A DNA stretch of 64,000 nucleotides from Eshraghiella crossota (GTDB lineage: Bacteria; Bacillota; Clostridia; Lachnospirales; Lachnospiraceae): contig NZ_CP102270.1 of assembly GCF_025148445.1 (NCBI RefSeq), forward strand, positions 2,026,001-2,090,000, given 5' to 3'. The position numbers and the translations under genes are program-made. The notes below the pieces were generated by a model. The model worked only from the letters and a program-made list of their open reading frames with translations. It was not told the DNA's origin and searched no databases. Below are positions 40,304 to 54,076 of the stretch, one piece after another. How positions within the stretch are numbered: position 1 is the stretch's first letter; each line of letters opens with the position of its first letter.

Positions 40304-41463
40304 TGATATTTTTTAAGATTATTATCAATTTCCACTGCCCTGTGTCTCCACAGATGGCCGCTGCATACAAGCATATGCCCCTGTTTTGCAATGTCGTCCC
40401 TATGTACTGCACTGTTTACTATGTCAGGAATCTCCTGCATATTATCAAGACTGAATCTTAGATATTCTACACCATCTTTTGCTATCTCATCTATATAGAG
40501 GGAACTGTCAGATACCACAACTGAGCCCTGTGCCATGCCATTAAAAAATCTGTCATGGACACCGTCTTTAAACCAAGGCATAATATTTACCGATACTTTG
40601 CTTCTTTTCATATATCTGAGGCATTCCAAAGAATCCCTTTGTCCTATCAGAACCAGATTTTCAGGTTTCTTACATCCGGCTTTTTCCCAGTCTTTCCCGA
40701 TAATATGTACCTTAATTCCATTTTCCGCAAGATTACATATAATCTTTTGCCTGAAATATGACCTTATATACAAGTCAATTACCATCATCTTATTAGTAAC
40801 CATAAGCATATCTTCTCTTGTAATATCAGGTATATCAGCTCTTACATGCTCCTCAATTACTTCATCTATTCCTTTGCCTGTATTGGTCTTTAAATCCTCA
40901 ATCATTGAATAACAAAATTCCCTGTTGTCCTTATCCAGCATATTTATTCTGTCTTCAAGCGGTTTGATATTCACATAATTTCCCGCAAAAAATACATCAA
41001 TATCCCTTTTTTGCCCACCTTCGTCAAGGGAAGTTCCCGCAAGAGGTAAAAAATCAACCTTCTTACCGGGATAATATCTTCTTATAAAATCCACATGCTG
41101 CCTGTCAATACAATACAGCATACAATCATTAATCATTTCCAGCTGGTCCCTGTAATAAAGAGGATGGTCAACCATGATGCAGACTTTTTTAATACCATAA
41201 TAATCCCAGACAGAAGTCTCTTTACCATCTGTTCCCTCAGCCATAAACTGGCTTTCCCCGCTTAGTCCGATAAAATTAAAAGTTATAAGTACAGCCTTTT
41301 CTCTTATGTTTTCAATAAAGTGCCTGCTCTCAAGAGGTTTTTTCATATCCCATGCAATTACGTTTTTATTTAATTCCGTATAAAATGTCTCCGCCAGCCT
41401 CTCCGAAAAAAAAGACAGTGTTTCCACCGGACCTTTTATAATTATAACGTCAGTATAATCCAT
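40300..41463 (-). CDS. CgeB-like glycosyltransferase (DUF3880-type N-terminus)
   Basis: 387 residues from ATG 41463, chosen because GGAGGGC precedes it. The frame is open further upstream, but that extension runs through a terminator and a tRNA gene. The N-terminal half (VCIMVDHPLYYRD, about 145) looks like DUF3880. The C-terminal half, with VSVNIMPWFKDGVHDRFFNGMAQGSV read in parts and VVVSDSSLYIDE, matches the CgeB-type GT4 domain. Such enzymes glycosylate spore coat or surface proteins. The target is unknown, and it has no related neighbour genes. Confidence 0.82.
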   Translation of the reverse strand: MDYTDVIIIKGPVETLSFFSERLAETFYTELNKNVIAWDMKKPLESRHFIENIREKAVLITFNFIGLSGESQFMAEGTDGKETSVWDYYGIKKVCIMVDHPLYYRDQLEMINDCMLYCIDRQHVDFIRRYYPGKKVDFLPLAGTSLDEGGQKRDIDVFFAGNYVNIKPLEDRINMLDKDNREFCYSMIEDLKTNTGKGIDEVIEEHVRADIPDITREDMLMVTNKMMVIDLYIRSYFRQKIICNLAENGIKVHIIGKDWEKAGCKKPENLVLIGQRDSLECLRYMKRSKVSVNIMPWFKDGVHDRFFNGMAQGSVVVSDSSLYIDEIAKDGVEYLRFSLDNMQEIPDIVNSAVHRDDIAKQGHMLVCSGHLWRHRAVEIDNNLKKYH

Positions 41464-41486
41464 AATATGCCCTCCGTTTACATTTA

Positions 41487-41522
41487 CAAAAAAAGTACCG
41501 GGAAATCCCATTTCCGGTACTC
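41487..41522 (-). terminator. Terminator after tRNA-Leu(UAG)
   Basis: Stem AGTACCGGAAAT / ATTTCCCGGTACT followed by T7 on the minus strand, just past the tRNA 3' end and before the glycosyltransferase gene. Confidence 0.88.
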
Positions 41523-41529
41523 TTAAAAA

Positions 41530-41611
41530 TGCGGATAACAGGAGTTGAACCTGCACGGGTGTTCCCACTAGAACCTAAATCTAGCGCGTCTGCCAATTCC
41601 GCCATATCCGC
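41530..41611 (-). tRNA. tRNA-Leu (UAG)
   Basis: Cloverleaf with acceptor GCGGATA / TATCCGC plus discriminator A, and anticodon loop TTTAGGT between CTAGA and TCTAG. A variable arm is present, as in type II tRNAs. Confidence 0.96.
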
Positions 41612-41659
41612 CCGCAGCATTTATTGACTGCTCCTATGATTATATCCTTTTTTATTATT

Positions 41660-42841
41660 TTATTCAACTGTTTTATCAGCAGCTTCATATATTGCCTGCG
41701 CAAGACTTGAAAGTGCCGCTTTATCGCTTTCCTTAACCGTGGACTTAATCGTTACAACAGGTTCAACCACTGTAATATTTTTGAAGGTATCAACAATGTT
41801 TCTCATCACTCTTGCCGCACATGGTGCCCAGGAACCGTTCTCAACCATTCCCACAGTTCTGTTCTGATAAGCCTTTGACTGCAGGCGTAAAAGGAAATCC
41901 TGCATGCAAGGGAACACCCCTCCGTCATAACTTGCGGCACAAAGAATCATTCTGTCATATCTGAAAGCATCTTCAATTACCTCTGCCATATCTTCTCTTG
42001 ATAAATCACTTACTACAACCTTATCTTCACCTGCTTTTTTAAGCATATCGGCAAGTTCATGTGCAGCCTTAGCCGTATTACCATGAATGGACGCATAAGC
42101 TATCAATACGCCTTTATTTTCAGGTTCATATCTGCTCCATGTATCATAAAGTCCTATGTAATATCCAAGATTATCTTTAAGTACAGGTCCGTGAAGCGGG
42201 CATATCATATTGACATCAAGTCCTGCTGCTTTTTTTAAGAGCTGCTGTACAGGTCCGCCGTATTTGCCTACTATGTTAAAATAATATCTTCTTGCTTCAC
42301 AAGCCCAGTCTTTATCCTTGGTAAGCTCTATCGCTCCGAATTTGCCGAAACCATCAGCCGAAAATAGAATTTTCTCGGTTGCTTCGTATGTGACCATTAC
42401 CTCAGGCCAGTGAACCATCGGTGCCATGTAAAAGACTAATTTATGTGTTCCCAGTGAAAGTTCTTCTCCTTCTTTTACGACAATGCTTCTTTCTGAAAAA
42501 TCCATGTCAAAAAACTGGGGAAGCATCTGAAATGTCTTGGCATTGCCTACAAGCTTCATATCCGGATATCTGACTGCAAGTCTTTCAATATTGGACGAAT
42601 GATCAGGTTCCAGATGTGATATCACAAGATAGTCCGGATGTCTGTCTTCAAAAACTTCTGTAAGATTACTAAACCACTCATCCGTCTTTCTTTCATCAAC
42701 AGTATCCATAACTGCAATTTTATCATCTAAAATTACGTAGGAATTATATGAAACACCATCAGGTACCAGATACTGGCTCTCAAACAAATCTATGTCAGTA
42801 TCATCAACGCCTATATATTTAACACTATCCGAAACTATCAT
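41660..42841 (-). CDS. FprA family A-type flavoprotein (flavo-diiron oxygen/NO reductase)
   Basis: 393 residues. The N-terminal metallo-beta-lactamase-like domain has the diiron motif HLEPDHSSN (near 80) and later MVHWPEVM and CPLHGPVL histidines. The C-terminal flavodoxin domain has FMN loop YASIHGNTAKAA near 255. These enzymes reduce O2 to water, or NO to N2O, in anaerobes. It begins 41 bp after agrA and could be read through from the agr operon. It has its own GAGGTAGA ribosome site. Confidence 0.96.
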   Translation of the reverse strand: MIVSDSVKYIGVDDTDIDLFESQYLVPDGVSYNSYVILDDKIAVMDTVDERKTDEWFSNLTEVFEDRHPDYLVISHLEPDHSSNIERLAVRYPDMKLVGNAKTFQMLPQFFDMDFSERSIVVKEGEELSLGTHKLVFYMAPMVHWPEVMVTYEATEKILFSADGFGKFGAIELTKDKDWACEARRYYFNIVGKYGGPVQQLLKKAAGLDVNMICPLHGPVLKDNLGYYIGLYDTWSRYEPENKGVLIAYASIHGNTAKAAHELADMLKKAGEDKVVVSDLSREDMAEVIEDAFRYDRMILCAASYDGGVFPCMQDFLLRLQSKAYQNRTVGMVENGSWAPCAARVMRNIVDTFKNITVVEPVVTIKSTVKESDKAALSSLAQAIYEAADKTVE

Positions 42842-42882
42842 TTTATCTACCTCGTTTCTAAAAATATTTTACTATAGTAACA

Positions 42883-43608
42883 TCATATGGATTTTTCCAC
42901 ATAATTTATAAATGCCTCTTTAATACTTGTATATCTGTTTCTTGATAAATATGCTACATATTTATCGCCGCAAAGATACACTGTGTTTTTGTCAATCCTT
43001 GATACATACTTAAGATTGATTATGAAACTCCGATGGCACATTACAAACATAAGCGGATTCAGTCCTATCAGAAAATCATTAATTGTTCCCATAACCCTTA
43101 TTACTTCGCCATTCTTCATATATAGTTTCAGTCTTCTTGAATCTTTCTCAACCATAACGATATTATATGTATTAACTTTGCGGTACACACAATTCCCCTC
43201 ATCAATCACAACATTAATTCTTCTCTTACACAGAATATTAAATGCATCACATATACATTTTACAATACGTTCCTGATTCAATGGTTTAGATATATATCTG
43301 AATACACAAAAGCTCATCGCATCATCCAGAAATTCAGTATGTGACGTTACATATGCTATAAGCACATCGGAATCATCCTGCTTTAATGCTCTGCCGACAC
43401 TAATCCCATCAGCCCCCGGCATCTCTATATCCAGAAAAACAAGATCCTTTTCGCCTTCATCTTCTAACAAATCTTTTCCGTTGTCATATTCGTCACATTC
43501 CAGCAGTCCCTGATAACCGCTTTTTCTCATACTTTTGAAAGCCAGTCTGATATTATCATGTAATCTCTGTCTTATGTATTCGTCATCATCACATATTATT
43601 ACTCTCAT
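42883..43608 (-). CDS. agrA: LytTR-family response regulator (AgrA-like)
   Basis: 241 residues from ATG 43608 (GGAG eight bases upstream). The receiver domain has the acidic pair DDD at 7-9, phospho-acceptor D60 in VFLDIEMPGADG, and a lysine in ISKPLNQE. The C-terminal LytTR domain has NIVMVEKDSRRLKLYM and MCHRSFIINLKYVSRI. It should bind pairs of 9-bp direct repeats. Two such pairs lie upstream of the duplicated lipoprotein genes at 49.8 and 51.3 kb. It is the last gene of the agr locus, one base after agrC. Confidence 0.92.
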   Translation of the reverse strand: MRVIICDDDEYIRQRLHDNIRLAFKSMRKSGYQGLLECDEYDNGKDLLEDEGEKDLVFLDIEMPGADGISVGRALKQDDSDVLIAYVTSHTEFLDDAMSFCVFRYISKPLNQERIVKCICDAFNILCKRRINVVIDEGNCVYRKVNTYNIVMVEKDSRRLKLYMKNGEVIRVMGTINDFLIGLNPLMFVMCHRSFIINLKYVSRIDKNTVYLCGDKYVAYLSRNRYTSIKEAFINYVEKSI

Positions 43609-43609
43609 A

Positions 43610-44896
43610 TTATTTCTCCACATACAATATTACAACTGCATGAAAGACCTTATCTTCAGGACTATAATAAGCTGAAAATTCTCCGCCGTTTTTCTTAATC
43701 GTACTCTTAATGCTCTTAAGCCCAAGACCATGCATTGTTTTATCCGGTTTGTCTGAAATAAAGTCCCCATATTTATTCTGGACAGGTTTCTTTATGCTTC
43801 TGTTCAATATATTTATATTAACATAACTGTCATTTTTTTTCTGAATAGATATATTTATAAAAGGAGACTCGCCTCCACAATTCTCTATTGCGTTATCAAG
43901 CAGGTTATATAGTATCGTAGTAATGGTCATTTCATCAATGCCTTCAATACACTTATCCCTTATATCGCAGTTCATTCTTATATTCTTTTCTTTGGCCTTT
44001 AATGTATATCTGTAAAGAATCGCACCCAGAAAAGTATTGTTGGAAATATCCTCTACGGACTTCACATCCGAATCTTCCAACAGGTTATCCAGATATTTAT
44101 TAACCTTGTCCACTTCACCGTATTCATTCATAAGCTTAAGCGTCTGAAAATGTTTTTTCATATCATGGATGAGAATTCTCATCTTCTCGTCCTTTTCCGA
44201 AGCAGTTTTTAAAAGCACTTCATCGCCTTCACGTTTCTGAATTGCAAGCTGTGCCATTCTGAGTTCTTCATTCCTCTTATTTGCCAATGAGAGCAATGAC
44301 ATAGTAAGAATCAACACTATCGAAGAAATCAACAGTGCAATAAATACCATCAAGCCTCCATTATCAATATCAGGAATTATCATCAAAACCTTGGTAAGAG
44401 CCGCATATAATACCAATATGCATAACACAATTCCGGTCGCAAGAAATCCTTCTATTTCGGCTTTTTCAGACTGTTTCCTCTTTTTCTGGAAATATACAAT
44501 TACCATTGCAACCAAAAAAAGAACAGCTCTTGCCAGTAGCATTAAAAATTTCAGATTACTGCTATACACTTCGTTCAAAAAGCCTGTATGAAAGTAATTA
44601 ATTATATTAACAATTTCCAGTTCACACAAGAAATTAACGGCAACAAGTACTGTAGCGTTAAAAAAAGAGTCTGCCGGATCACCGGAATATGCAAACCCTA
44701 ATACAAGTACCCCTGCCATAACATCCGCAAATGCGTTAAGCATGGAATTATCCGAATGGGTAAGTGCGGCACACCCGTATAATACAATATATATCAATAT
44801 ACGAATCGGAAGCTTAAACCTTGGTATATACATACACCTTGCAAATATAACCGTTACAAAAGCCTCCAGGAAATATGACATTATAATTACGTCCAT
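43610..44896 (-). CDS. agrC: AgrC-like sensor histidine kinase
   Basis: 428 residues. Five to six N-terminal membrane helices (1-205) form the peptide-sensing part. A coiled coil leads to the phospho-acceptor block ILIHDMKKHF (near 244). A GHKL ATPase domain has the N-box NLLDNAIENC (near 337) and the G-box GLGLKSIKSTIKKNGG (near 395). AAGGA ten bases before ATG 44896 supports this start. It detects the peptide made by agrD/agrB and phosphorylates the LytTR regulator. Confidence 0.92.
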   Translation of the reverse strand: MDVIIMSYFLEAFVTVIFARCMYIPRFKLPIRILIYIVLYGCAALTHSDNSMLNAFADVMAGVLVLGFAYSGDPADSFFNATVLVAVNFLCELEIVNIINYFHTGFLNEVYSSNLKFLMLLARAVLFLVAMVIVYFQKKRKQSEKAEIEGFLATGIVLCILVLYAALTKVLMIIPDIDNGGLMVFIALLISSIVLILTMSLLSLANKRNEELRMAQLAIQKREGDEVLLKTASEKDEKMRILIHDMKKHFQTLKLMNEYGEVDKVNKYLDNLLEDSDVKSVEDISNNTFLGAILYRYTLKAKEKNIRMNCDIRDKCIEGIDEMTITTILYNLLDNAIENCGGESPFINISIQKKNDSYVNINILNRSIKKPVQNKYGDFISDKPDKTMHGLGLKSIKSTIKKNGGEFSAYYSPEDKVFHAVVILYVEK

Positions 44897-44963
44897 TATT
44901 ACTTTATCCTTAATCGTTAATTATCCCAAAAATTACTAAATAATTATACATTTTTTTAGTAAA

Positions 44964-45527
44964 TCAGTCAATAATATGTGAGCCTCCTATACACGGCCAT
45001 TGTAACGATGCAGTAAGTAACATTCCCAACGTAAGAAACCTTGAAAAATACCCTATATGCATGATAAAAAGTACAAATACCACAATTAAAATAATCGTGG
45101 ACAAAATAATTGCTGTTAATTTAAAATGTATAATTCTGCCGGAGTCTATCTTCTTATCAGGAGATACAATTGGACTCAACGCATCAATGGATACAGCGCT
45201 TATAACTGCTGTAACATAATAAAATATATCGCATGATACAAAAACGCCGATTGAGAATATTGCAAGATATGACAATGTAGAAACCACAAGACACAATTTA
45301 ATACTTTTCAAGTGAAATCCTCCGCAGAAACTGCGGAGGACTACATAGGGAACTGCCATAAGTAAAGCCTCTGCCACCATCCTGAACACCATTCCCACAA
45401 CAAGTGCAATTACAAACGGTGCAAACAGAAAGACAAGGCTTCTACAGGCATAATCGTACAAATCTCTGTCTTCTGCCTGTATTACATTACTCTTTATAAG
45501 CCAATCAGTGATTTTCCCTTTTTTCAC
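44964..45527 (-). CDS. agrB: AgrB-like peptide-processing membrane protease
   Basis: 187 residues with about five membrane helices. The catalytic block RSFCGGFHLKSIKLC has His72 and Cys79 with the same seven-residue spacing as His77/Cys84 of the staphylococcal enzyme. It cuts and cyclises the AgrD precursor and helps export it. The start is GTG at 45527, inside the 3' end of agrD (23-bp overlap), so the two are translationally coupled. No ATG lies upstream of the conserved region. Confidence 0.93.
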   Translation of the reverse strand: MKKGKITDWLIKSNVIQAEDRDLYDYACRSLVFLFAPFVIALVVGMVFRMVAEALLMAVPYVVLRSFCGGFHLKSIKLCLVVSTLSYLAIFSIGVFVSCDIFYYVTAVISAVSIDALSPIVSPDKKIDSGRIIHFKLTAIILSTIILIVVFVLFIMHIGYFSRFLTLGMLLTASLQWPCIGGSHIID

Positions 45528-45660
45528 GTTCTACAACTCTTTCGTACAAATTATCAGGTGTCTTTTCCTGATATGTAATAGGTGATGAAACAGTCACCAC
45601 CTCGTTCCTGAGGACAACGTCAAGAAGTTTCTTAACTACATTTGCTGTTTTAGTTTTCAT
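45505..45660 (-). CDS. agrD: AgrD-like autoinducer peptide precursor lacking cysteine
   Basis: 51 codons, found by hand translation upstream of agrB. It has an amphipathic N-terminal helix (about 3-22, VVKKLLDVVLRNEVV). The short core SSPIT (25-29) is followed by the conserved acidic tail YQEKTPDNLYE, which matches the YQPEEPKSL-type tail of clostridial AgrD. The position normally held by Cys is Ser25, so the product would be a serine lactone, as in Staphylococcus intermedius. AAGGGTGG precedes ATG 45660. The core borders are inferred from alignment by eye. Confidence 0.82.
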   Translation of the reverse strand: MKTKTANVVKKLLDVVLRNEVVTVSSPITYQEKTPDNLYERVVEREKRENH

Positions 45661-45768
45661 ATAAACTACCACCCTTTCTAACTTTTGTAATACACATTGT
45701 AATTTATTTTTCTTCTAATGAAAAGGAAAAATTCGCTACAGATTGTGCAAAAATTGTATTTTTGTGGA

Positions 45769-46476
45769 TTATATCTTTTTGTCTCCAATCCATTTAAGAT
45801 ATGCATCTTCAACATTTTCTTCATCATCAAGGGTACAAAGGAACTTTCCGTGGTTCATAATAATAATTTCATTGGCTATCATTTCTATATCTGAAATAAT
45901 ATGTGTGGATATTAGGACAATTCTGTCTTTTGCAATACTATGGATATAATTTCTTATATTAACTCTTTCCTGCGGATCAACCCCTGCTGTCGGTTCGTCA
46001 AGAACTAACAGACTTGGATTGTTAAGAAGTGATTGTGCCAGTAAAACTCTCTGTTTCATTCCTCCTGACATCTTTTCCAATGTTTTATTGCGGAATTCAT
46101 ACATATTTACTTCATTAAGAAGTTCTTCCGTTCTGGTTTTTGCCTCTTTTTTATCAAGTCCTTTTAATCCGGCAAGATACATCATAAAAGCATAGGCCGT
46201 AAATTCACCATAATAACCCTGCTGCTGTGGCATATACCCCAGTTCATTTCTGTATTTCTTTCCCAGTCTGAGAATTTCATTTCCATTCCAGAGAATACTT
46301 CCGGAATCTCTCTTTATGTTATCTGTAATTGCATTAATTAACGTGCTTTTACCGGCACCGTTAGGTCCTAACAAACCATATATTCCATTATGAAAAGTAT
46401 AATTTATATTGTTTAACGCCTTAACGTCCTTGAACTGTTTATTTAAGTTGATAATTTCTAATTCATTTTTCATCAT
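45769..46476 (-). CDS. ABC transporter ATP-binding protein
   Basis: 235 residues. Walker A is GPNGAGKST (near 38), the signature is MSGGMKQRV, Walker B is LLVLDEPTAG and the H-loop is in ISTHIISD. It overlaps the end of the permease gene by four bases. It is the energy subunit for the large membrane protein next to it. The agr genes lie 109 bp downstream. The substrate is unknown. Confidence 0.95.
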   Translation of the reverse strand: MMKNELEIINLNKQFKDVKALNNINYTFHNGIYGLLGPNGAGKSTLINAITDNIKRDSGSILWNGNEILRLGKKYRNELGYMPQQQGYYGEFTAYAFMMYLAGLKGLDKKEAKTRTEELLNEVNMYEFRNKTLEKMSGGMKQRVLLAQSLLNNPSLLVLDEPTAGVDPQERVNIRNYIHSIAKDRIVLISTHIISDIEMIANEIIIMNHGKFLCTLDDEENVEDAYLKWIGDKKI

Positions 46477-48545
46477 TTACACCATTTCCTATAAGCAATA
46501 TGATACACCGAAGCTGTTGCAGCCGTTAAAAATACCATAGCATATATTATTGCATTTACACTGCCATGTCTGACAATATACGGAGAGACCGACATTACAT
46601 CAATTATTGATAATTTTTCCATAAAATTAATCCCGATAAGGTACAATAATGATGGTATACAAAGAATAAAGGCAAACATAAACGAAATTGTCTGGCTTGT
46701 AATAACTGACAGCGAAGCAGCTACCATTGCAATCATCACAGTTATTGCTATTCTCATAAGGCACACGAATATGTAAAACATACCAATACTGCAATTCCAT
46801 TTTACAAACCAGAACGTCTCAAGACTCTGTACAGGAGCTTTCATAACAATCGCTCCATATCCGTGTATAGCAGAACTTACTTCAAGTATTATTTCAAAAA
46901 TTCCTACGGCTGACGCCGTCAGAACGGCATATCTCATCTTTTTGTTAAAAAGCTTCTCTCTACCGTTAATGCACTGCCTCAGGAGTCCATTCATGCCTTT
47001 TTTGCGCTCATAGTAAAAGATACCGCTGCATAACAATACAACAGTCACAAACGTAACAAGGTTTACCATGGTATTATCATTTTTAAACAGTCTGCCATAT
47101 TTGTATTTATTGACATACCATCCATTTTTTGTATTTTCCTTAAGATAATCTGTCTGACTTTCTATTTCCTGCAAAAACATTTTATCTTCCATATATGTCT
47201 GCATAACAAGCTGCATATTTATATATTCCGAATCACTGACAAGGCCTTTACTATGGGCTTCTTCAACTCTTTGATACTGTGCATCCACTTCGTCAAGTGT
47301 ATTCCTTAAATCATCGATTTCTTTTGCCGAATCATATCCCGGAACACCTTCATACTTGTCCATAAATGCAAAATACATATCCTTTGCCCTGTTTTTTTCA
47401 TTGACTCCAAAATATGTGCTTCTTATAACAACAAAAGCAAGCACAGCCAGTATGATTAATCCTTTTTCTATCCACATTATTTTATATGTTTCAGGAATTT
47501 TTAACTGGACCGAATTTCTTATATTACCTATTGTCTTACCAAGGATATTTATTTTTAAACCTTTAACGTAAGTTCTTTTGCAATGGCTTACCAGTATGCC
47601 CGTTAATGAGGCTATAACAATGTTAATGCCCACAAATCCTGCCATCATTACATTTTTACCGACAGCCTTATTAAACACATTAATATTTTTGTACCTGGTA
47701 AAAAATGTATTGCTCGATGCGAGACAGTACAAATTACAATATTTCAAAATATTACATGCCGTATTATCATTAGTGAGTCTCGTCATTCCATACTGGATTC
47801 CACCTATAATGGCAGCAATTCCCAGAGGAATAATTTCATTATTAAAAATAGTAAACAGCATATACAATATTGCAGATATTGCAAATAGAATAAATACTCT
47901 ATATACATAATATTTCAGCAAAAAGATTCCTATCGTATCTGTTGCCGTCCAGTTTTTAAATATTTCTATTGATTGTATAGGATATGTAAGGCTTGTAAAC
48001 ACATTACCTTTTAATATTATTCCGCTGCATATAAGATTAGCCCCATAAAACGCCATGACAATTAAAGCATCCCATAAGAGAATAGCTGTCAGGCGTCTGG
48101 CTGCCATCACGCCCCGCCCATTTTTTGTCGCATATAAGAGTCCTTTTATACCCTTTTCCTTTTCGGGTTTGTATACAAATACCACCAAAATTCCTGCAAT
48201 AAGTACAAATCCAAAAAGTTCCTTATATTGGAAATGAGCGGTCATAAAATTGTCATCAAAGGAAGCAATCTTTACATCCTGCAGTTTCTTATAGTCTTTC
48301 AAAGTCTTTTCAATATTCGCCTTTGAAAACGAATCCGCTTTATAAAATATGCTTACTTTGGACATACTTTCTGCTTTTTTTACCACTTCTCCAACATAAT
48401 CCGAATAATTCAGGGTATAATTTTCATCATGTACAGTTTTGACGTAATTCCTATTGATATATGCAAAAAACAGCAACTGTAAAATACATAAAAAGGCTAT
48501 TCCTGCAAATATTTTTTTATAAATAATTACCTTCTTAAATTCCAT
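46473..48545 (-). CDS. Large ABC-2-like membrane protein, probably two fused permease halves
   Basis: 690 residues with about twelve membrane helices in two sets. Each half holds a similar cytoplasmic block: VYKPEKEKGIKGLLYATKNGR near 125, and YERKKGMNGLLRQCINGRE near 505. A hydrophilic segment (about 385-490) with a coiled coil lies between. The repeat suggests that two ABC-2 permeases fused into one chain. The gene starts one base after the lipoprotein stop and runs into the ATPase gene, so all three are probably one transcript and one system. The substrate is unknown. Confidence 0.8.
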   Translation of the reverse strand: MEFKKVIIYKKIFAGIAFLCILQLLFFAYINRNYVKTVHDENYTLNYSDYVGEVVKKAESMSKVSIFYKADSFSKANIEKTLKDYKKLQDVKIASFDDNFMTAHFQYKELFGFVLIAGILVVFVYKPEKEKGIKGLLYATKNGRGVMAARRLTAILLWDALIVMAFYGANLICSGIILKGNVFTSLTYPIQSIEIFKNWTATDTIGIFLLKYYVYRVFILFAISAILYMLFTIFNNEIIPLGIAAIIGGIQYGMTRLTNDNTACNILKYCNLYCLASSNTFFTRYKNINVFNKAVGKNVMMAGFVGINIVIASLTGILVSHCKRTYVKGLKINILGKTIGNIRNSVQLKIPETYKIMWIEKGLIILAVLAFVVIRSTYFGVNEKNRAKDMYFAFMDKYEGVPGYDSAKEIDDLRNTLDEVDAQYQRVEEAHSKGLVSDSEYINMQLVMQTYMEDKMFLQEIESQTDYLKENTKNGWYVNKYKYGRLFKNDNTMVNLVTFVTVVLLCSGIFYYERKKGMNGLLRQCINGREKLFNKKMRYAVLTASAVGIFEIILEVSSAIHGYGAIVMKAPVQSLETFWFVKWNCSIGMFYIFVCLMRIAITVMIAMVAASLSVITSQTISFMFAFILCIPSLLYLIGINFMEKLSIIDVMSVSPYIVRHGSVNAIIYAMVFLTAATASVYHIAYRKWCK

Positions 48546-48546
48546 A

Positions 48547-49728
48547 TCAATTCTCTGTCTCGTAAACTTCTATCGGTACAAACGTGTCATCAGAAGCTAT
48601 CTTAAAATATCCTAGTCCTTTTATTCCTTTAATTCCCGGTTCTCCCTTCTTGTAAATATATACAAAAACAGTATCTCCGTCTATTCCATATATACTGCTG
48701 ATATTATCTTTATCCAGATTTCTTTCATACACCTTTTTGCCCGTAAAATCATATACCTGCATATTACTTTTATCATATACCGTTACATATTTATCGGATA
48801 CAAGCATACTCTGTTCTTCGTAAATCTTACCAATAAACTCTTCAGATGTTTTCTTCTCAAAATCATACACCTGTACACCGCCATCCAGACTGTAATATAG
48901 CCTGTTAATGCCTATCCCATAGTAGGAAACCGCATTTTCCACTACTTTTTCAACCTTACCGGTATCAATGTCATACGAAAAAATGCTGGCATTTATATCA
49001 ATATTATCTGCCAAGAAATTACCTGCCTGAAAGAAAATATGATTTCCATAGGCTCTTATTCTGTACAGATTCTGTCTGTCTCCTGTCATCTCATACACAG
49101 TCTCTGCTTCCTTACTTCCCAGTTTCATTCTCTGAAGTTTCATTGTACTTTGGAATGGAATCACATAATACACATATCCTCTGTGTATGCATATCTCAGG
49201 ATATCCCGGAGTTTCATCATCATTTACCTCCAGCCTGTATAATGTCATATACTTTTCAAAAGATGTTCCATCATCTTTCAATCTGTATAAGTTAATGTCA
49301 CATCCGGTATTTTCAACTTTTTCTACACCGGTCTCATATACATATCCATCATTATAATAAACAGATGAAGATAATGATATACCGTTTCTGTCAATATACG
49401 ATACACATTCCTCAGTATTGTGTGTACAATCGGGATTACTGCAAAGCGGTACACAATTTTCAAGCTTACTATCTAAAAATTTAAGGTTATTTTGTAGCGA
49501 AACATAGTAACCGTCATGTGATTCACTCATATATCCCCATTCATATCCAACGGATGAATCAGTCTTTTCGTTATAGCTAAAGTCATAGTCTCCCACAACA
49601 TAATTTATATTATTGTCAACATTATTATCTATATCTTTGTTTGTATTATTGTCATTGTTGTTTTTCCCACTACATCCACATAATAATAACCCTACAGCAA
49701 TAAATGCTGCCAATGTTCTTTTTTTCAT
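48547..49728 (-). CDS. Beta-propeller-like lipoprotein, copy A
   Basis: 393 residues with lipobox LLCGCSG, then an Asn/Asp-rich linker (about 22-45). The body has repeated short strands of the type VYYVIPFQSTMKLQRMKLGSKEA, DNIDINASIFSYDIDTGKVEKV and LYYSLDGGVQVYDFEKK, as in DUF5050-like propellers. A single CSNPDCTHNTEECVSY block may bind a metal. It is extracellular and membrane-tethered. It is the first gene of the unit with the ABC transporter and carries the LytTR-type repeats in its promoter. It is about 90 percent identical to copy B by eye. Confidence 0.85.
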   Translation of the reverse strand: MKKRTLAAFIAVGLLLCGCSGKNNNDNNTNKDIDNNVDNNINYVVGDYDFSYNEKTDSSVGYEWGYMSESHDGYYVSLQNNLKFLDSKLENCVPLCSNPDCTHNTEECVSYIDRNGISLSSSVYYNDGYVYETGVEKVENTGCDINLYRLKDDGTSFEKYMTLYRLEVNDDETPGYPEICIHRGYVYYVIPFQSTMKLQRMKLGSKEAETVYEMTGDRQNLYRIRAYGNHIFFQAGNFLADNIDINASIFSYDIDTGKVEKVVENAVSYYGIGINRLYYSLDGGVQVYDFEKKTSEEFIGKIYEEQSMLVSDKYVTVYDKSNMQVYDFTGKKVYERNLDKDNISSIYGIDGDTVFVYIYKKGEPGIKGIKGLGYFKIASDDTFVPIEVYETEN

Positions 49729-49817
49729 GATAAATTACCTCCATTTAAATTTAATTTTATACTTGACCGGTCGCTTGTATTCTAACATAATTATTAATGC
49801 ACAAAAACCCTCTTTGC

Positions 49818-49847
49818 ATAAACGGTGCGATTTCGTGCATAAACGGT
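49818..49847 (-). promoter_or_regulatory. LytTR (AgrA-type) direct-repeat site upstream of copy A
   Basis: On the minus strand ACCGTTTAT occurs twice (49839-49847 and 49818-49826) with a 12-bp spacer. Both copies match the LytTR consensus [TA][AC][CA]GTTN[AG][TG] at all nine positions. A -10-like TAGAAT follows about 45 bp downstream, so the site lies in the usual activator place before the -35 region. Confidence 0.82.
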
Positions 49848-49885
49848 ATTACTATTAGTGAATAGTAAATGATATGTCATAGAAT

Positions 49886-49925
49886 TCTCTACCTTTTCGG
49901 CTGATTTCCGCTATTTTGGTAGAGA
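49886..49925. repeat. Single stem-loop repeat at the duplication junction
   Basis: TTCTCTACC ... GGTAGAGA with inner sequence CTTTTCGGCTGATTTCCGC, the reverse complement of the units in the 19.5-19.85 kb array. It lies exactly between the two lipoprotein duplicates. Confidence 0.85.
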
Positions 49926-49935
49926 TTTACGGACG

Positions 49936-49993
49936 GCAACAATGGCAATTCCTGCAAATATTTTTTATAACTAATTGCCTTCTTAAATTCCAT
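49936..49993 (-). pseudogene. Remnant of the permease gene 5' end
   Basis: Starts at ATG 49993 with MEFKKAISYKK, matching MEFKKVIIYKK of the 690-residue permease, then loses frame and runs into the stem-loop repeat. It shows that the duplicated block included the first 50-60 bases of the downstream gene. Confidence 0.85.
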
Positions 49994-49994
49994 A

Positions 49995-51176
49995 TCAATT
50001 CTCTATCTCGTAAATATCTACCTGTACAAGTGCATCATCAGAAGATATCTTAAAATATCCCAATCCCTGTATTCCTTTGATTTCAGGTTTTCCTTTTCTG
50101 TTAATATATACAAAGACCGTATCTCCGTCTATTCCATATATCGCACTGATATCATCTTTATCCAGATTTCTTTCATACACCTTTTTGCCCGTAAAATCAT
50201 ATACCTGCATATTACTTTTATCATATACCGTTACATATTTATCGGATACAAGCATACTCTGGTCTTCGTAAATCTTACTAATAAATTCTTCAGATGCTTT
50301 CTTCTCAAAATCATACACCTGTACACCGCCATCCAGACTGTAATATAGCCTGTTAATGCCTATCCCATAGTAGGAAACCGCATTTTCCACTACTTTTTCA
50401 ACCTTACCGGTATCAATGTCATACGAAAAAATGCTGGCATTTATATCAATATTATCTGCCAAGAAATTGCCTGCCTGAAAGAAAATATGATTCCCATAGG
50501 CTTTTATTCTGTACAGATTCTGTCTGTCTCCTGTCATCTCATACACAGTCTCTGCTTCCTTACTTCCCAGTTTCATTCTCTGAAGTTTCATTGTACTTTG
50601 GAATGGAATCACATAATACACATATCCTCTGTGTATGCACACTTCCGGATATGGTGTAACTTCACCGTCGCCTGCCTCCAGTCTGTACAATGTCATATAC
50701 TTTTCAAATGATGTTCCGTCATCTTTCAATCTGTATAAATTAGTGTCACATCCTTTATTTTCAACTGTTTTCTTTCCTACCTCATATATATATCCATCGT
50801 AATAATAAACTTGTGAAACTAATGATATATCATTCCTATAAAAATACGATACACATTCTTCAGTATTATGGGTACAATCGGGATTACTGCAAAGCGGAAC
50901 ACAATTTTCAAGCTTACTATCCAAAAATTTAATGTTCCCTAGTATCGGAACATAGTAACCGTCATGTGATTCACTCATATCTCCCCATTCATATCCAACC
51001 GGTGAATCAGTCTTTTCGTTATAGCTAAAGTCATAGTCTCCCACAACATAATTTATATTATTGTCAACATTATTATCTATATCTTTGTTTGTATTATTGT
51101 CATTGTTGTTTTTCCCACTACATCCACATAATAATAACCCTGCAGCAATAAATACTACCAGTGTTCTTTTTTTCAT
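49995..51176 (-). CDS. Beta-propeller-like lipoprotein, copy B
   Basis: 393 residues from ATG 51176 (GGAGG eight bases upstream). A start five codons further up is not needed. It has the same lipobox, Asn-rich linker, CSNPDCTHNTEECVSY block and propeller strands as copy A. Differences concentrate near residues 90-140 and at the C-terminus. It has its own LytTR-type promoter site. Its downstream permease is only a remnant, so it may be expressed alone or read through into copy A. Confidence 0.85.
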   Translation of the reverse strand: MKKRTLVVFIAAGLLLCGCSGKNNNDNNTNKDIDNNVDNNINYVVGDYDFSYNEKTDSPVGYEWGDMSESHDGYYVPILGNIKFLDSKLENCVPLCSNPDCTHNTEECVSYFYRNDISLVSQVYYYDGYIYEVGKKTVENKGCDTNLYRLKDDGTSFEKYMTLYRLEAGDGEVTPYPEVCIHRGYVYYVIPFQSTMKLQRMKLGSKEAETVYEMTGDRQNLYRIKAYGNHIFFQAGNFLADNIDINASIFSYDIDTGKVEKVVENAVSYYGIGINRLYYSLDGGVQVYDFEKKASEEFISKIYEDQSMLVSDKYVTVYDKSNMQVYDFTGKKVYERNLDKDDISAIYGIDGDTVFVYINRKGKPEIKGIQGLGYFKISSDDALVQVDIYEIEN

Positions 51177-51264
51177 ATAAATTACCTCCATTTAAATTTA
51201 ATTTTTTATTTGACCGGTCACTCGTATTCTAACATAATTATTAATGCACAAAAACCCCCTTTGC

Positions 51265-51294
51265 ATAAACGGTACGATTTCGTGCATAAACGGT
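51265..51294 (-). promoter_or_regulatory. LytTR (AgrA-type) direct-repeat site upstream of copy B
   Basis: The same two perfect ACCGTTTAT repeats (51286-51294 and 51265-51273) with a 12-bp spacer. The spacer differs by one base from the copy A site while both repeats are unchanged, which suggests that the repeats are under selection. Confidence 0.82.
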
Positions 51295-51332
51295 ATTACT
51301 ATTAGTGAATTGTAAATGATATATCATAGGAT

Positions 51333-51373
51333 TCTCTACCTTTTCCGCCGTTTTTTTGCTGTTTGGGTAGAGA
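51333..51373. repeat. Single stem-loop repeat upstream of copy B
   Basis: TTCTCTACC ... GGGTAGAGA with a more diverged loop than the others. Together with the copy at 49886 it brackets the duplicated 1.4-kb block. Confidence 0.8.
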
Positions 51374-51412
51374 TTTCCGATTTTTGCATAAGAAATTTAC
51401 TACAAAGTAAAA

Positions 51413-51443
51413 TAAAAAAGGACTGCATCGTAATGCAATCCTC
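51413..51443 (-). terminator. Terminator of the six-tRNA cluster
   Basis: Stem AGGATTGCAT / ATGCAGTCCT with a TACG loop, then TTTTTTATTTT on the minus strand, directly after tRNA-Lys. Confidence 0.88.
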
Positions 51444-51451
51444 TAACTTAG

Positions 51452-51524
51452 TGAGCCATCGGGGACTCGAACCCCGGACAACTTGATTAAAAGTCAAGTG
51501 CTCTACCACCTGAGCTAATGGCCC
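51452..51524 (-). tRNA. tRNA-Lys (UUU)
   Basis: Acceptor GGGCCAT / ATGGCTC plus A. Anticodon stem-loop CTTGA-CTTTTAA-TCAAG. Confidence 0.96.
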
Positions 51525-51548
51525 ATATTAAATTATTGTTGACCTTAA

Positions 51549-51620
51549 CTGGGCTAGTTGGATTCGAACCAACGTATGCAGCAGTCAAAGTGCTGTGCCT
51601 TACCGCTTGGCGATAGCCCA
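51549..51620 (-). tRNA. tRNA-Gln (UUG)
   Basis: Acceptor TGGGCTA / TAGCCCA plus G. Anticodon stem-loop CAGCA-CTTTGAC-TGCTG. Confidence 0.96.
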
Positions 51621-51632
51621 ATGGATTAAAAA

Positions 51633-51708
51633 GGGTGGATAAAGGGATTCGAACCCTTGACCTCCAGAGCCACAATCTGGCGCGCTAACCAACTGCGCTA
51701 TACCCACC
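51633..51708 (-). tRNA. tRNA-His (GUG)
   Basis: Anticodon stem-loop CCAGA-TTGTGGC-TCTGG. The 5' end carries the extra G expected at position -1 of tRNA-His. Confidence 0.95.
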
Positions 51709-51750
51709 ATAATGTAAACGCCCATTGTATCAGCGTACTCGCAAAGCGAA

Positions 51751-51824
<74 letters not shown>

Positions 51825-51853
51825 ACATCATATTCACATAAAAGCGAATATTA

Positions 51854-51924
51854 AGCGGGTGATGGGAATCGAACCCACGTATCTAGCTTGGAAGGCTAGT
51901 GTTCTACCATTGAACTACACCCGC
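51854..51924 (-). tRNA. tRNA-Gly (UCC)
   Basis: Acceptor GCGGGTG / CACCCGC plus T. Anticodon stem-loop CTAGC-CTTCCAA-GCTAG. Confidence 0.96.
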
Positions 51925-51928
51925 AAAG

Positions 51929-52003
51929 TCGGGGTGACAGGATTCGAACCTGCGACCTCTTGATCCCAAATCAAGCGCTCTAGCCAAGCTGAGCCACACC
52001 CCG
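51929..52003 (-). tRNA. tRNA-Pro (UGG)
   Basis: Acceptor CGGGGTG / CACCCCG plus A. Anticodon stem-loop CTTGA-TTTGGGA-TCAAG. First gene of the cluster. Confidence 0.96.
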
Positions 52004-52044
52004 GTATTCTGTTGTGTTTGTCGTCTCTGTCAGACGCAAGTGTT

Positions 52045-52073
52045 ATTATAGGGTATAAGTCCCATAATGTCAA
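52045..52073 (-). promoter_or_regulatory. Consensus sigma-A promoter of the tRNA cluster
   Basis: Perfect TTGACA (52068-52073), 17-bp spacer and perfect TATAAT (52045-52050), with an A/T-rich UP-like stretch directly upstream. This is the strongest promoter match in the window, as expected for stable RNA. Confidence 0.93.
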
Positions 52074-52178
52074 CACTTTTTTTAAAAAAATTTTAAAAAT
52101 TTTTAAAGAGCCTGAAAGCCCGCTTAAATACTGTCTTTCACAAGGACACTTTTGAAAAACAACCGATTGAGAGACACG

Positions 52179-52207
52179 CAGCCCGCTGACAATAAATCAG
52201 CGGGCTG
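52179..52207 (-). terminator. GC-rich hairpin after the subtilase gene
   Basis: Perfect 11-bp stem CAGCCCGCTGA / TCAGCGGGCTG with a 7-nt loop, 79 bp past the subtilase stop. The T-tract is poor on both strands, so terminator activity is uncertain. Confidence 0.5.
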
Positions 52208-52285
52208 TGTGCTTTGTTATTGGCTTCACTTAAAGTAACACAAAGCTACGGTAGAGGTATTATTGCTGATTATGAAAAATCAACT

Positions 52286-53851
52286 TTACTGCTCCCAAGC
52301 CAGTCCAACACGGTCAGACGATGTTTTAGCCGTGCCATATCTAACGATTTTTGCAGTATAATATCCTGCGCCATATTGAGCAATTTTCGAGGCCGGAATA
52401 ATAATCACTTCATTGTTCCGGACTCCAGTGCTGGACGCCACTAAAGTATTTCCCTTGTAAATATAGAGATCATAATCTGTTACTTTGTTGGTGTTGTTAA
52501 CTATCTCACCTTCCCATGCAATACTAATTCGAAATGCTTTGCTGGTATAATCCGCATAGATTGAATGCGTTTGTGAAGATGCACTACTTGGGGTAAAATC
52601 GAAATGCCATCTGCGTCCATTTTGAGCCACTCTGTATGTAAAATTAGCATCTACAACGCCGGCACCTTCCTTATTTGAAATGTTATTTGTGAAACCAGTT
52701 CTTGCATTAAAGTAACAACTTGCCATGACCGCAGCTTTGAGTATTTGTGGTTTATCACTCATTCCAGAATTACGATCTATCATTTGTGCAACAATGCCCG
52801 TGATAAGTGGTGTTGCCATGCTTGTTCCACTCCAACCGGTGTAACCGTATAAATTCAGATTTTCACCTGGGGCACAAACATCAGGCTTATTAATCACTCC
52901 AGAAGCTTCTGCATAATCCGAAAAAGATGAGAAGGTATATGTGGACGAGGACGCAGTAGTATATCCACGGTGATTTACTGAGCCAACAGTAATAACATTA
53001 TTTGCAACTCCATACCCACTAACATAAGTGTTGTTATTACCAGCGGCAACGACAACGGTCACTTTGTTCTGTCTTACTAATCGATCCAGTCTGCGAGAGG
53101 CATCGTTATACTGTCCATAGCTGTTAAAGCCGAGTGACATATTGATGACTTGAACCTTATTTACCGTCATAAGCCGTTCCAATGCGTCCAAATCAGCAAC
53201 AGTAGTGTTCGAAGCTGACTTAATCAAGTAGATATTTGCTCCCGGAACTAATGTGTGAATTTCTCCGGCAACAAATGTCGCATGATCATCTGTGCCTGTT
53301 GTTGGACCTCCAACATTTGTGAGTTTAGAGCCAATCAGATTTCGATTTGCCCAACCATGTTCCACAACACCAATTTTGACACCTGTACCATCATAACCAT
53401 TGTTTCTACTGGTGTTAGAACGAATACAAGAATCTGCAGAAGAAAGACTATATCCGCATGAATATGTTTCGTAAATATCGACAATATCAATTCTTTCAAC
53501 CGAATTGTCTTTTGAAATATTTTCGATTTCTTCTGCTGTTAAGTAGACGAGATTAATGTCAGGTAAAGAAAGGGAGACACTTTCAGCTTGGATATTATAT
53601 TTTTGCAAAAATGACTGGTTAATATCCGCCACCTCATCGCATATTTCATCAATTCTAATCTGACGATACTCTTCATACTTAACTTCTATTTGTGCCTTGT
53701 CAAGAGTGGCGTCTATATTAAAATCGGAATTTTGCTTTACTGCGAAAGGTGTGATCACATTTGCATCAACAGAATAATTTTCTGCAACAAATACACTTGC
53801 ATCCAATTCGACATAAGCAATTTCCTGCTCAGAAATATTGGACATATCCAT
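52286..53851 (-). CDS. S8 (subtilisin-like) serine peptidase, catalytic part downstream of an in-frame stop
   Basis: 521 codons in the same frame as the signal-peptide piece at 53873-54076, from which a single TAG separates it. Catalytic landmarks: IGVVEHGW (near 160) where most subtilases have VIDTG, so Glu replaces Asp. His is in DDHATFVAGEI (near 188), the oxyanion Asn in VVAAGNN and Ser in GTSMATP (near 345). A C-terminal beta domain follows. The first 130 residues look like a propeptide. Without the upstream piece this part would have no secretion signal, and no good ribosome site precedes ATG 53851. Confidence 0.85.
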   Translation of the reverse strand: MDMSNISEQEIAYVELDASVFVAENYSVDANVITPFAVKQNSDFNIDATLDKAQIEVKYEEYRQIRIDEICDEVADINQSFLQKYNIQAESVSLSLPDINLVYLTAEEIENISKDNSVERIDIVDIYETYSCGYSLSSADSCIRSNTSRNNGYDGTGVKIGVVEHGWANRNLIGSKLTNVGGPTTGTDDHATFVAGEIHTLVPGANIYLIKSASNTTVADLDALERLMTVNKVQVINMSLGFNSYGQYNDASRRLDRLVRQNKVTVVVAAGNNNTYVSGYGVANNVITVGSVNHRGYTTASSSTYTFSSFSDYAEASGVINKPDVCAPGENLNLYGYTGWSGTSMATPLITGIVAQMIDRNSGMSDKPQILKAAVMASCYFNARTGFTNNISNKEGAGVVDANFTYRVAQNGRRWHFDFTPSSASSQTHSIYADYTSKAFRISIAWEGEIVNNTNKVTDYDLYIYKGNTLVASSTGVRNNEVIIIPASKIAQYGAGYYTAKIVRYGTAKTSSDRVGLAWEQ

Positions 53852-53872
53852 AGCTTGTTTCTCAACAGATAC

Positions 53873-54076
53873 CTAATCGACAGTATCCTTTAGCTGTATC
53901 TGAACAGGTATTTTCGCAGAAGAATCAGAACTTTTCTGTTCCATAACACTCATCAACCGGCTGGAGATTGTGTCAGCATTGCTGATGGGCAATGCTTGTG
54001 CAGATGCACCCAATGTGAACGGAACAATAGCAATTGAGAGAGCGAGAATAGTGCTAATAAATCGGATTCGTTTCAT
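53873..54076 (-). pseudogene. Signal peptide and propeptide start of the S8 peptidase, cut off by TAG
   Basis: 67 codons: MKRIRFISTILALSIAIV begins a Sec signal ending near ASAQA, then a propeptide start up to QLKDTVD and TAG at 53873-53875. The next codons in the same frame, VSVEKQAMDMSN, run into the peptidase. AAGGAGTG precedes the ATG. One base change (for example CAG to TAG) explains the split. The full reading would be 596 codons. Confidence 0.82.

What the first reader, a model, noticed from the sequence alone, without database searches (positions are those of the whole stretch)
49818..51294. Perfect LytTR direct repeats in front of both duplicated lipoprotein genes link them to the adjacent agr circuit
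ACCGTTTAT-N12-ACCGTTTAT occurs upstream of each copy. Both repeats fit the LytTR consensus fully and have the exact AgrA-type spacing. The repeats are unchanged between the two copies although the DNA around them has changed. A LytTR regulator is encoded 6 kb away on the same strand. The Agr system may therefore switch on a lipoprotein/ABC transporter module, a target set that I do not know from other Agr systems.
Basis: partly seen in the sequence, partly recalled or inferred. Interest (0 to 1): 0.8.

Follow-up and report, generated by a model that had tools for sequence, protein, structure and literature searches.

The report
Agr-linked switch for lipoprotein transporter module
The same DNA repeat pair sits in front of both copies of a duplicated lipoprotein gene beside an agr-like cell-signalling locus, and it is predicted to let that locus switch on the lipoproteins and the transporter genes behind them.

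Summary
The repeats are real, exact and rare: the only two exact copies in the 2.52-Mb genome. A motif written from own-genome sites hits five places there (<=2 mismatches; reversed control none), each 102-119 bp before a gene's first start codon, with promoter-like elements about 10 bp downstream: both lipoprotein copies, a secreted-protein/FtsX-ABC operon, and two promoters of a second kinase/LytTR/lipoprotein locus whose regulator is the closest paralogue (42%) of the window's. In 396 other family genomes the motif hits near background, but 5 of 9 intergenic hits lie beside LytTR genes (1 of 16 intragenic), so it behaves as a LytTR box. Reading: agr-type circuit -> LytTR regulator -> lipoprotein/ABC operon, possibly reading through into agrDBCA as feedback. 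Binding, activation and cognate pairing are inferred. Corrections: the two sites are one tandem duplication (promoter + gene + permease stub), so their mutual identity is weak evidence; permease and ATPase directly follow copy 2; LytTR control of ABC transporters is known (sil, pln, LRS). New details: a predicted Ser-type AgrD without Cys, beta-propeller lipoproteins, and a second locus with ACCGCTTA instead of ACCGTTTA boxes.

The parts
51265..51294 (-). direct-repeat pair (predicted LytTR box) of lipoprotein copy 1
   Evidence: exact match; 103 bp before the first start codon of the ORF (51191), 118 bp before the ATG at 51176
51249..51254 (-). predicted weak -35 (TTTTTG), 10 bp after the repeat pair; TTTTGT one base on scores equally
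   Evidence: 2 of 6 match to TTGACA
51226..51231 (-). predicted -10 (TAGAAT)
49995..51176 (-). lipoprotein copy 1, 393 aa, lipobox LLLCGC (read by eye), beta-propeller model
49944..49993 (-). remnant of the 5' end of the permease gene behind copy 1 (duplication scar, one-base gap)
49818..49847 (-). direct-repeat pair (predicted LytTR box) of lipoprotein copy 2, 119 bp before its ATG
   Evidence: exact match
49802..49807 (-). predicted weak -35 (TTTTTG) of copy 2; TTTTGT one base on scores equally
49779..49784 (-). predicted -10 (TAGAAT) of copy 2
48547..49728 (-). lipoprotein copy 2, 393 aa, 344 of 393 residues identical to copy 1
46473..48545 (-). predicted ABC permease, 690 aa, no Pfam or NCBIfam family; 1-bp gap to copy 2
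45769..46476 (-). ABC transporter ATPase, overlaps the permease gene by 4 bp
   Evidence: (PF00005)
45505..45660 (-). predicted AgrD precursor, 51 aa, Ser in place of Cys
   Evidence: no Pfam family
44964..45527 (-). AgrB family protein
   Evidence: PF04647, 110.5 bits, cut-off 23
43610..44896 (-). AgrC-like histidine kinase (HATPase_c_5)
42883..43608 (-). AgrA-like LytTR response regulator, predicted binder of the boxes
   Evidence: PF00072, PF04397; paralogue comparison

Best explanation
The two repeat pairs are predicted LytTR activator boxes through which the neighbouring agr-type circuit (predicted AgrD-AgrB peptide signal, kinase, LytTR regulator at 42883-43608) likely switches on the lipoprotein genes and the ABC transporter genes behind copy 2. 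Shown: exact repeats here, and a shared box (up to 2 mismatches to one motif) with one layout (9-12-9 repeat, about 10 bp, -35-like, 16-17 bp, -10-like) at five promoter regions of this genome. Inferred: (a) AgrB cyclises AgrD through Ser and the kinase senses the peptide; (b) the phosphorylated regulator binds the pair as a dimer and helps RNA polymerase at the weak -35; (c) transcription from the copy-2 promoter runs through permease and ATPase and possibly into agrDBCA, giving positive feedback; (d) the secreted-protein/FtsX-ABC operon at genome position 144758 belongs to the same regulon; (e) the paralogous kinase/regulator locus at 2.356 Mb uses its own variant box (ACCGCTTA).
For: Exact repeats, 0.11 expected per window at <=3 mismatches. 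The motif gives 5 sites in this genome and 0 reversed-control hits; the other 396 genomes give 25 hits in 24 genomes against 21 control hits. The 5 own sites start 102-119 bp before the first start codon of an ORF. Best -35/-10 match over gaps of 4-13 bp: gap 10 at both L024 sites and L031; gaps 10 and 11 tie at the two window sites. A scan given geometry, a TT in the half-site core and promoter scores, but not the motif, returned 4 distinct sites from 47 stretches: the L024 pair, L031, and L160. The two L024 boxes are 27/30 identical but 15/60 upstream (best 30-mer 27; maximum of 40 shuffles 21), so that conservation is not a duplication effect. L024's regulator is the only other own-genome match to the window's at E <= 1e-30 (42% identity; DNA-binding part 41%). 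Foreign motif hits: 5 of 9 intergenic have a LytTR gene on the ~3-kb locus against 1 of 16 intragenic (post hoc Fisher p 0.012; Pfam LytTR for the five). No terminator predicted between ATPase and agrD. PMC6193735 (passages): LytTR-system repeats mostly 12 bp apart with a strong bias to 10 bp before -35.
Against: The genome has 11 LytTR-domain matches, so the cognate regulator is inferred from neighbourhood. The motif was written from sites it then finds. The two window sites are one duplication and count once. The L031 site overlaps a 60-aa ORF that I take for spurious. No box was found before agrD or before the kinase gene; promoter-like sites exist there (45724-45696, 9 of 12; 44971-44943, 11 of 12), so read-through feedback is uncertain. 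The 18 foreign loci of the regulator clade show no ACCGYTTA-type box near the regulator. The window promoters fall below the cut-off of the scan, since the -35 matches only 2 of 6. The AgrD candidate hits no Pfam family.
Confidence: 0.66

Rival explanations
1. The boxes are real LytTR sites, but another LytTR protein of the genome (for example the paralogue at 2.356 Mb, or one at the other agr loci at 0.37 and 1.99 Mb) is the regulator, alone or jointly.
For: 11 LytTR-domain matches in the genome. The paralogue's half-sites differ mainly by T to C at one position. In two other genomes such pairs stand upstream of LytTR regulators that are closer to the genome's L030 type than to the window's (L100, L107). 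PlnC and PlnD share one set of repeats (PMC2714321, passages).
Against: No such intergenic pair was found in the L027 and L030 agr stretches; the only weak hit there, 3 mismatches at L030 5319-5348, lies inside a 170-aa ORF. All four half-sites of the window locus carry GTTTA and all four of the L024 locus GCTTA.
Confidence: 0.22
2. The repeats serve only the lipoprotein/ABC operon, as a downstream target; agrDBCA is transcribed from its own promoters and there is no feedback loop. (This overlaps with the best explanation and differs only in step c.)
For: Promoter-like sites before agrD (9 of 12) and before the kinase gene (11 of 12); 108-bp gap between ATPase and agrD.
Against: No predicted terminator in that gap and all genes on one strand. 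The promoter scan found 45 sites against 47.2 in shuffles, so its hits carry little weight.
Confidence: 0.35
3. The repeats are a by-product of the duplication, or chance, without regulatory function.
For: Promoter flanks of the copies are 93% identical, so the repeats' conservation between copies is expected; loosened matches to the plain pattern are at background.
Against: Does not explain three unlinked promoter regions with the same box and layout, nor the LytTR neighbours of foreign hits.
Confidence: 0.04

Closest known systems
Staphylococcal agr (AgrBDCA with AgrA-activated P2/P3 and psm promoters)
   Same: AgrB family protein, predicted AgrD, GHKL kinase, LytTR regulator; [quoted passage not shown]
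   Different: Not an AgrA orthologue by NCBIfam (quorum_RR_AgrA 28.8 bits, cut-off 400); box ACCGTTTAT; target is a lipoprotein/ABC module; no box found before agrD; an Rfam scan of 41000-54000 at gathering thresholds found only tRNAs
sil locus of streptococci (SilA box before an ABC transporter)
   Same: LytTR regulator, direct repeats, ABC transporter operons in the regulon (PMC2766830, passages)
   Different: sil repeats are 10-11-10 and its peptide SilCR is thought to be exported by an ABC transporter; here AgrB/AgrD and 9-12-9
pln regulon of Lactobacillus plantarum (PlnC/PlnD, TACGTTAAT repeats)
   Same: Two homologous LytTR regulators, 9-12-9 repeats directly upstream of -35, an ABC transporter operon (PMC2714321, passages)
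   Different: There both regulators bind the same repeats; here the two loci carry different boxes
LytTR Regulatory Systems (LRS)
   Same: Repeats mostly 12 bp apart with a bias to 10 bp before -35, linked ABC transporters (PMC6193735, passages); the foreign hit L097 stands before a LytTR/DUF3021 pair (Pfam) followed by an ABC ATPase ORF (BLAST)
   Different: The window regulator has a receiver domain and a kinase, not a membrane inhibitor
S. pseudintermedius and Enterococcus Fsr lactone peptides
   Same: Lactone ring instead of thiolactone (PMC3673130, passages); Ser predicted as ring residue here
   Different: Sequence and host differ; ring not demonstrated here

Membership tests
Agr-type quorum-sensing locus | AgrB family peptidase gene | tested here: met
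   PF04647 110.5 bits over cut-off 23
Agr-type quorum-sensing locus | AgrD precursor next to agrB | tested here: inconclusive
   51-aa ORF overlapping agrB; C-terminal part resembles AgrD-like ORFs at 6 relatives (aligned by eye), but no Pfam family and Ser for Cys
Agr-type quorum-sensing locus | GHKL sensor kinase plus LytTR response regulator | tested here: met
   PF14501; PF00072 and PF04397
Agr-type quorum-sensing locus | Positive feedback on agr transcription | not testable with these tools
   no box found directly before agrD; read-through possible
AgrA (NCBIfam equivalog) | score over the curated cut-off | tested here: not met
   28.8 bits against 400; so AgrA-like, not AgrA
LytTR-activated promoter | two 9-bp direct repeats 12 bp apart | tested here: met
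LytTR-activated promoter | box just upstream of the -35 element | tested here: inconclusive
   best promoter match lies 10 bp on at L024 x2 and L031, and 10 or 11 bp on at the two window sites, where the -35 matches only 2 of 6
LytTR-activated promoter | bound by a LytTR protein | not testable with these tools
   needs a binding assay; 5 of 9 intergenic foreign hits beside LytTR genes
LytTR Regulatory System (LRS) | membrane inhibitor instead of kinase | tested here: not met
   kinase gene precedes the regulator gene
Bacteriocin regulon of sil/pln/blp type | bacteriocin peptide genes under the same box | not tested
   not searched

The most novel reading that the evidence does not exclude
One genome carries two descendant LytTR circuits that have split their promoter code by one base (ACCGTTTA against ACCGCTTA). 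One of them is an agr circuit with a serine-lactone signal whose autoinduction promoter sits in front of a beta-propeller lipoprotein/ABC transporter, so the transporter module is built into the quorum-sensing loop and has been duplicated in part together with its switch.
Probability: 0.3. Interest if true: 0.68.

Novelty: new variant of a known kind. Interest (0 to 1): 0.5.

Why it matters
If true, this gives an agr-type circuit of the window's bacterial family a proposed direct regulon with an explicit box, made of surface lipoproteins and ABC transporters rather than toxins or a regulatory RNA. The paired loci, whose boxes differ mainly by one base, offer a test of how duplicated LytTR circuits become insulated.

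Tried and rejected
Between-copy conservation as evidence of selection: rejected. Flanks are 137/148 identical and p is about 0.25; the copies are a tandem duplication with a permease stub; dS along the genes is patchy, 0.03 to 0.47 per 65-codon block, which suggests but does not prove gene conversion.

Box in relatives: the 18 foreign loci of the regulator clade (all that one search returned) showed no ACCGYTTA-type box near the regulator; L087 and L088 gave one weak generic-consensus pair each, and a few weak direct repeats of other sequence appeared. In 10 of the 11 relatives where the FhRhHRS motif was read its third residue is Gln (one Arg; 7 not read), while the window has Met and the paralogue Val. 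A changed specificity would explain the absence; this is inference.

Presence/absence: 4 of 4 same-genus genomes lack the lipoprotein (E <= 0.001) and a regulator match at E <= 1e-30. One of 4 has a 22% permease match. The L031 permease has only 28-32% matches there. So no orthologous promoter was left to compare.

A mistake found on checking: the row L029 was a response-regulator ORF of that stretch, not its LytTR protein. The right ORF matches the window regulator at 22% (E 0.008) and has no ABC or AgrB hit within 6 kb, so the ranking and the counts below stand. The L026 row is a LytTR fragment.

Exact-motif scan of viral contigs: 0. Permease scan of genome contigs: 2 distant loci, no ACCG-type box in the held stretches. 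A first genome pattern was mis-registered and found 1 site; it was replaced by that. Rfam scan of 41000-54000: tRNAs only. Folding of the ATPase-agrD gap: z -1.27, no terminator-like hairpin. Solved-structure search with the regulator: the 60 of 79 rows shown match the receiver part. Literature searches for this combination showed nothing on it in the rows listed (15 of 19, 6 of 6, 9 of 9, 12 of 69, 12 of 4,620); I saw listings and abstract starts, and passages of the papers cited.

Neighbourhood counts (ABC ATPase in 12, AgrB in 7 of 20 clade loci within 6 kb; 3 and 3 of 9 other own LytTR loci) include truncated contigs and have no proper background; the lipoprotein detector of that script was crude and is not used.

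Full report
What is there. On the minus strand the order is: six tRNA genes; repeat pair 1; lipoprotein copy 1; a stub of the permease gene; repeat pair 2; lipoprotein copy 2; permease; ATPase; predicted agrD; agrB; kinase; LytTR regulator. The repeats are exact and are the only exact copies in the genome.

How the two sites relate. Segments 51167-51354 and 49720-49907 (91%), and 49961-50260 and 48513-48812 (90%), repeat at a 1447-1448 bp step. Behind copy 1 about 50 bp of the permease start survive with a one-base gap. So promoter, gene and permease start were duplicated as one unit, and the two sites count as one observation. Both copies look to be under purifying pressure (dN 0.067, dS 0.204).

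Beyond the window. A motif written from the own-genome sites hits 5 places here with <=2 mismatches and 0 in the reversed control; 396 other family genomes give 25 hits in 24 genomes against 21 control hits. The site starts lie 102-119 bp before the first start codon of the next ORF. Promoter elements read as repeat pair, gap, -35-like, 16-17 bp, -10-like. When gaps of 4-13 bp are tried, the best match has gap 10 at both L024 sites (TTGAAA) and at L031 (TTGACA), and gaps 10 and 11 tie at the two window sites (TTTTTG or TTTTGT). The L031 site overlaps a 60-aa ORF, which I take for spurious. A scan told the geometry, a TT in the half-site core and promoter scores, but not the motif, over 47 stretches returned 7 rows = 4 sites: two in L024, one in L031, and one in L160 that I take for chance. 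The window promoters miss that scan's cut-off because of their weak -35, which fits activator dependence but does not prove it.

The paralogous locus. L024 (genome 2.350-2.362 Mb) carries a kinase, a LytTR regulator and two further genes with lipoprotein-like starts, read by eye. One box stands before the kinase and one before the first of these; they are 27/30 identical although their upstream flanks match at only 15/60. Its regulator is the only other own-genome match to the window's at E <= 1e-30 (42.2% over 244 aa; next by score L028 with 25.6%). Its kinase is the closest to the window's of the four other own kinases compared (28.9% over 425 aa). Half-sites of the window locus read GTTTA, those of L024 GCTTA. 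That each regulator reads its own box is inference.

The third target. L031 (genome 144758) has a box followed by a 163-aa ORF with a signal-like start and an FtsX-type ABC transporter operon. The 10 bp after its box match those of the lipoprotein promoters 9/10.

Check of the motif in other genomes. The 25 foreign hits split into 9 intergenic and 16 inside ORFs of 60 aa or more. A LytTR gene lies on the same ~3-kb locus for 5 of 9 intergenic and 1 of 16 intragenic hits (Fisher p 0.012, a post hoc test). The profile used contained sequences from two of the five, but Pfam gives LytTR for all five. So the repeat behaves as a LytTR box as a class, though not necessarily of this regulator.

The agr circuit. 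AgrB and kinase/regulator families are met. The small ORF before agrB contains VSSPITYQEKTPDNLYE near its end. AgrD-like ORFs at six relatives of the regulator clade read SASCIISYQPKAP, TASCVIMYQPKAP, STSCIIMHQPKAP, SASSVVAYQPKAP, SNSSIIMNQPKVP and SNSTLLCHEPSAP. Aligned by eye, the ring position is Cys in three, Ser in two and Thr in one (which has a Cys three residues on), and predicted Ser here. Lactone signals are known from S. pseudintermedius and Enterococcus (PMC3673130, passages).

The lipoprotein/ABC module. The lipoprotein model is nearly all beta strand where it is ordered (pLDDT 81, pTM 0.79), and its best Foldseek matches are proteins that I recall as propeller-bearing (best E 7.9e-8; TM to query 0.24-0.57 in the 50 rows shown). 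Of the ten stretches fetched for lipoprotein relatives (L154-L163), 7 show lipoprotein, permease and ATPase matches in one run (L154, L156-L158, L160-L162). A LytTR response-regulator gene lies near the lipoprotein gene in L157 and L163, and other two-component-like genes in L154, L161 and L162 (read by eye). In L073 AgrB and kinase matches stand beside lipoprotein and ATPase matches. What the module transports is unknown; my guess is export of, or protection from, a peptide or lipid at the envelope (inference only).

Against prior art. LytTR repeats with a bias to 10 bp before -35 are the reported layout of LRS operons (PMC6193735, passages). LytTR control of ABC transporters is known in sil (PMC2766830, passages) and pln (PMC2714321, passages). 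I saw no print of an agr-type circuit with a propeller-lipoprotein/ABC target in the rows listed (open-licence papers only, lists partly capped). So: a new variant of a known kind.

Noticed in passing
45505-45660: Predicted AgrD without cysteine; by eye, Ser or Thr also stands at the Cys position in 3 of 6 AgrD-like ORFs beside related regulators.
   Followed up: partly
L024 5906-5935 and 7987-8016 (genome 2350000-2362000): Second kinase/LytTR/lipoprotein locus with ACCGCTTA boxes before the kinase and before a lipoprotein-like gene; no AgrB hit within 6 kb of its regulator.
   Followed up: yes
49944-49993: Stub of the permease gene behind lipoprotein copy 1: scar of a tandem duplication of promoter plus gene.
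   Followed up: yes
49765-49772 and 51212-51219: Perfect palindrome GACCGGTC just downstream of both predicted -10 elements (0.07 expected per window); the two are copies of one duplication; no role assigned.
   Followed up: no
48547-51176: Divergence between the two lipoprotein genes is patchy (dS 0.03-0.47 per 65 codons), and 83 database variants of 390-400 aa at 78-94% identity exist, mostly single-member clusters; gene conversion or diversification possible.
   Followed up: partly
L073 151-9112: Kinase and AgrB matches followed by a secreted-like protein, lipoproteins, two membrane proteins and an ATPase: another agr-lipoprotein-ABC neighbourhood in a different genus.
   Followed up: partly
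L164 2-1450: LytTR/DUF3021 pair followed by an ABC ATPase ORF, with an ACCGTTTAT pair 119 bp upstream.
   Followed up: partly
42883-51191: The module has lower G+C (0.34-0.37) than the window (0.384), lies between tRNA genes, and its lipoprotein and regulator are missing from four congeners: possibly acquired.
   Followed up: partly
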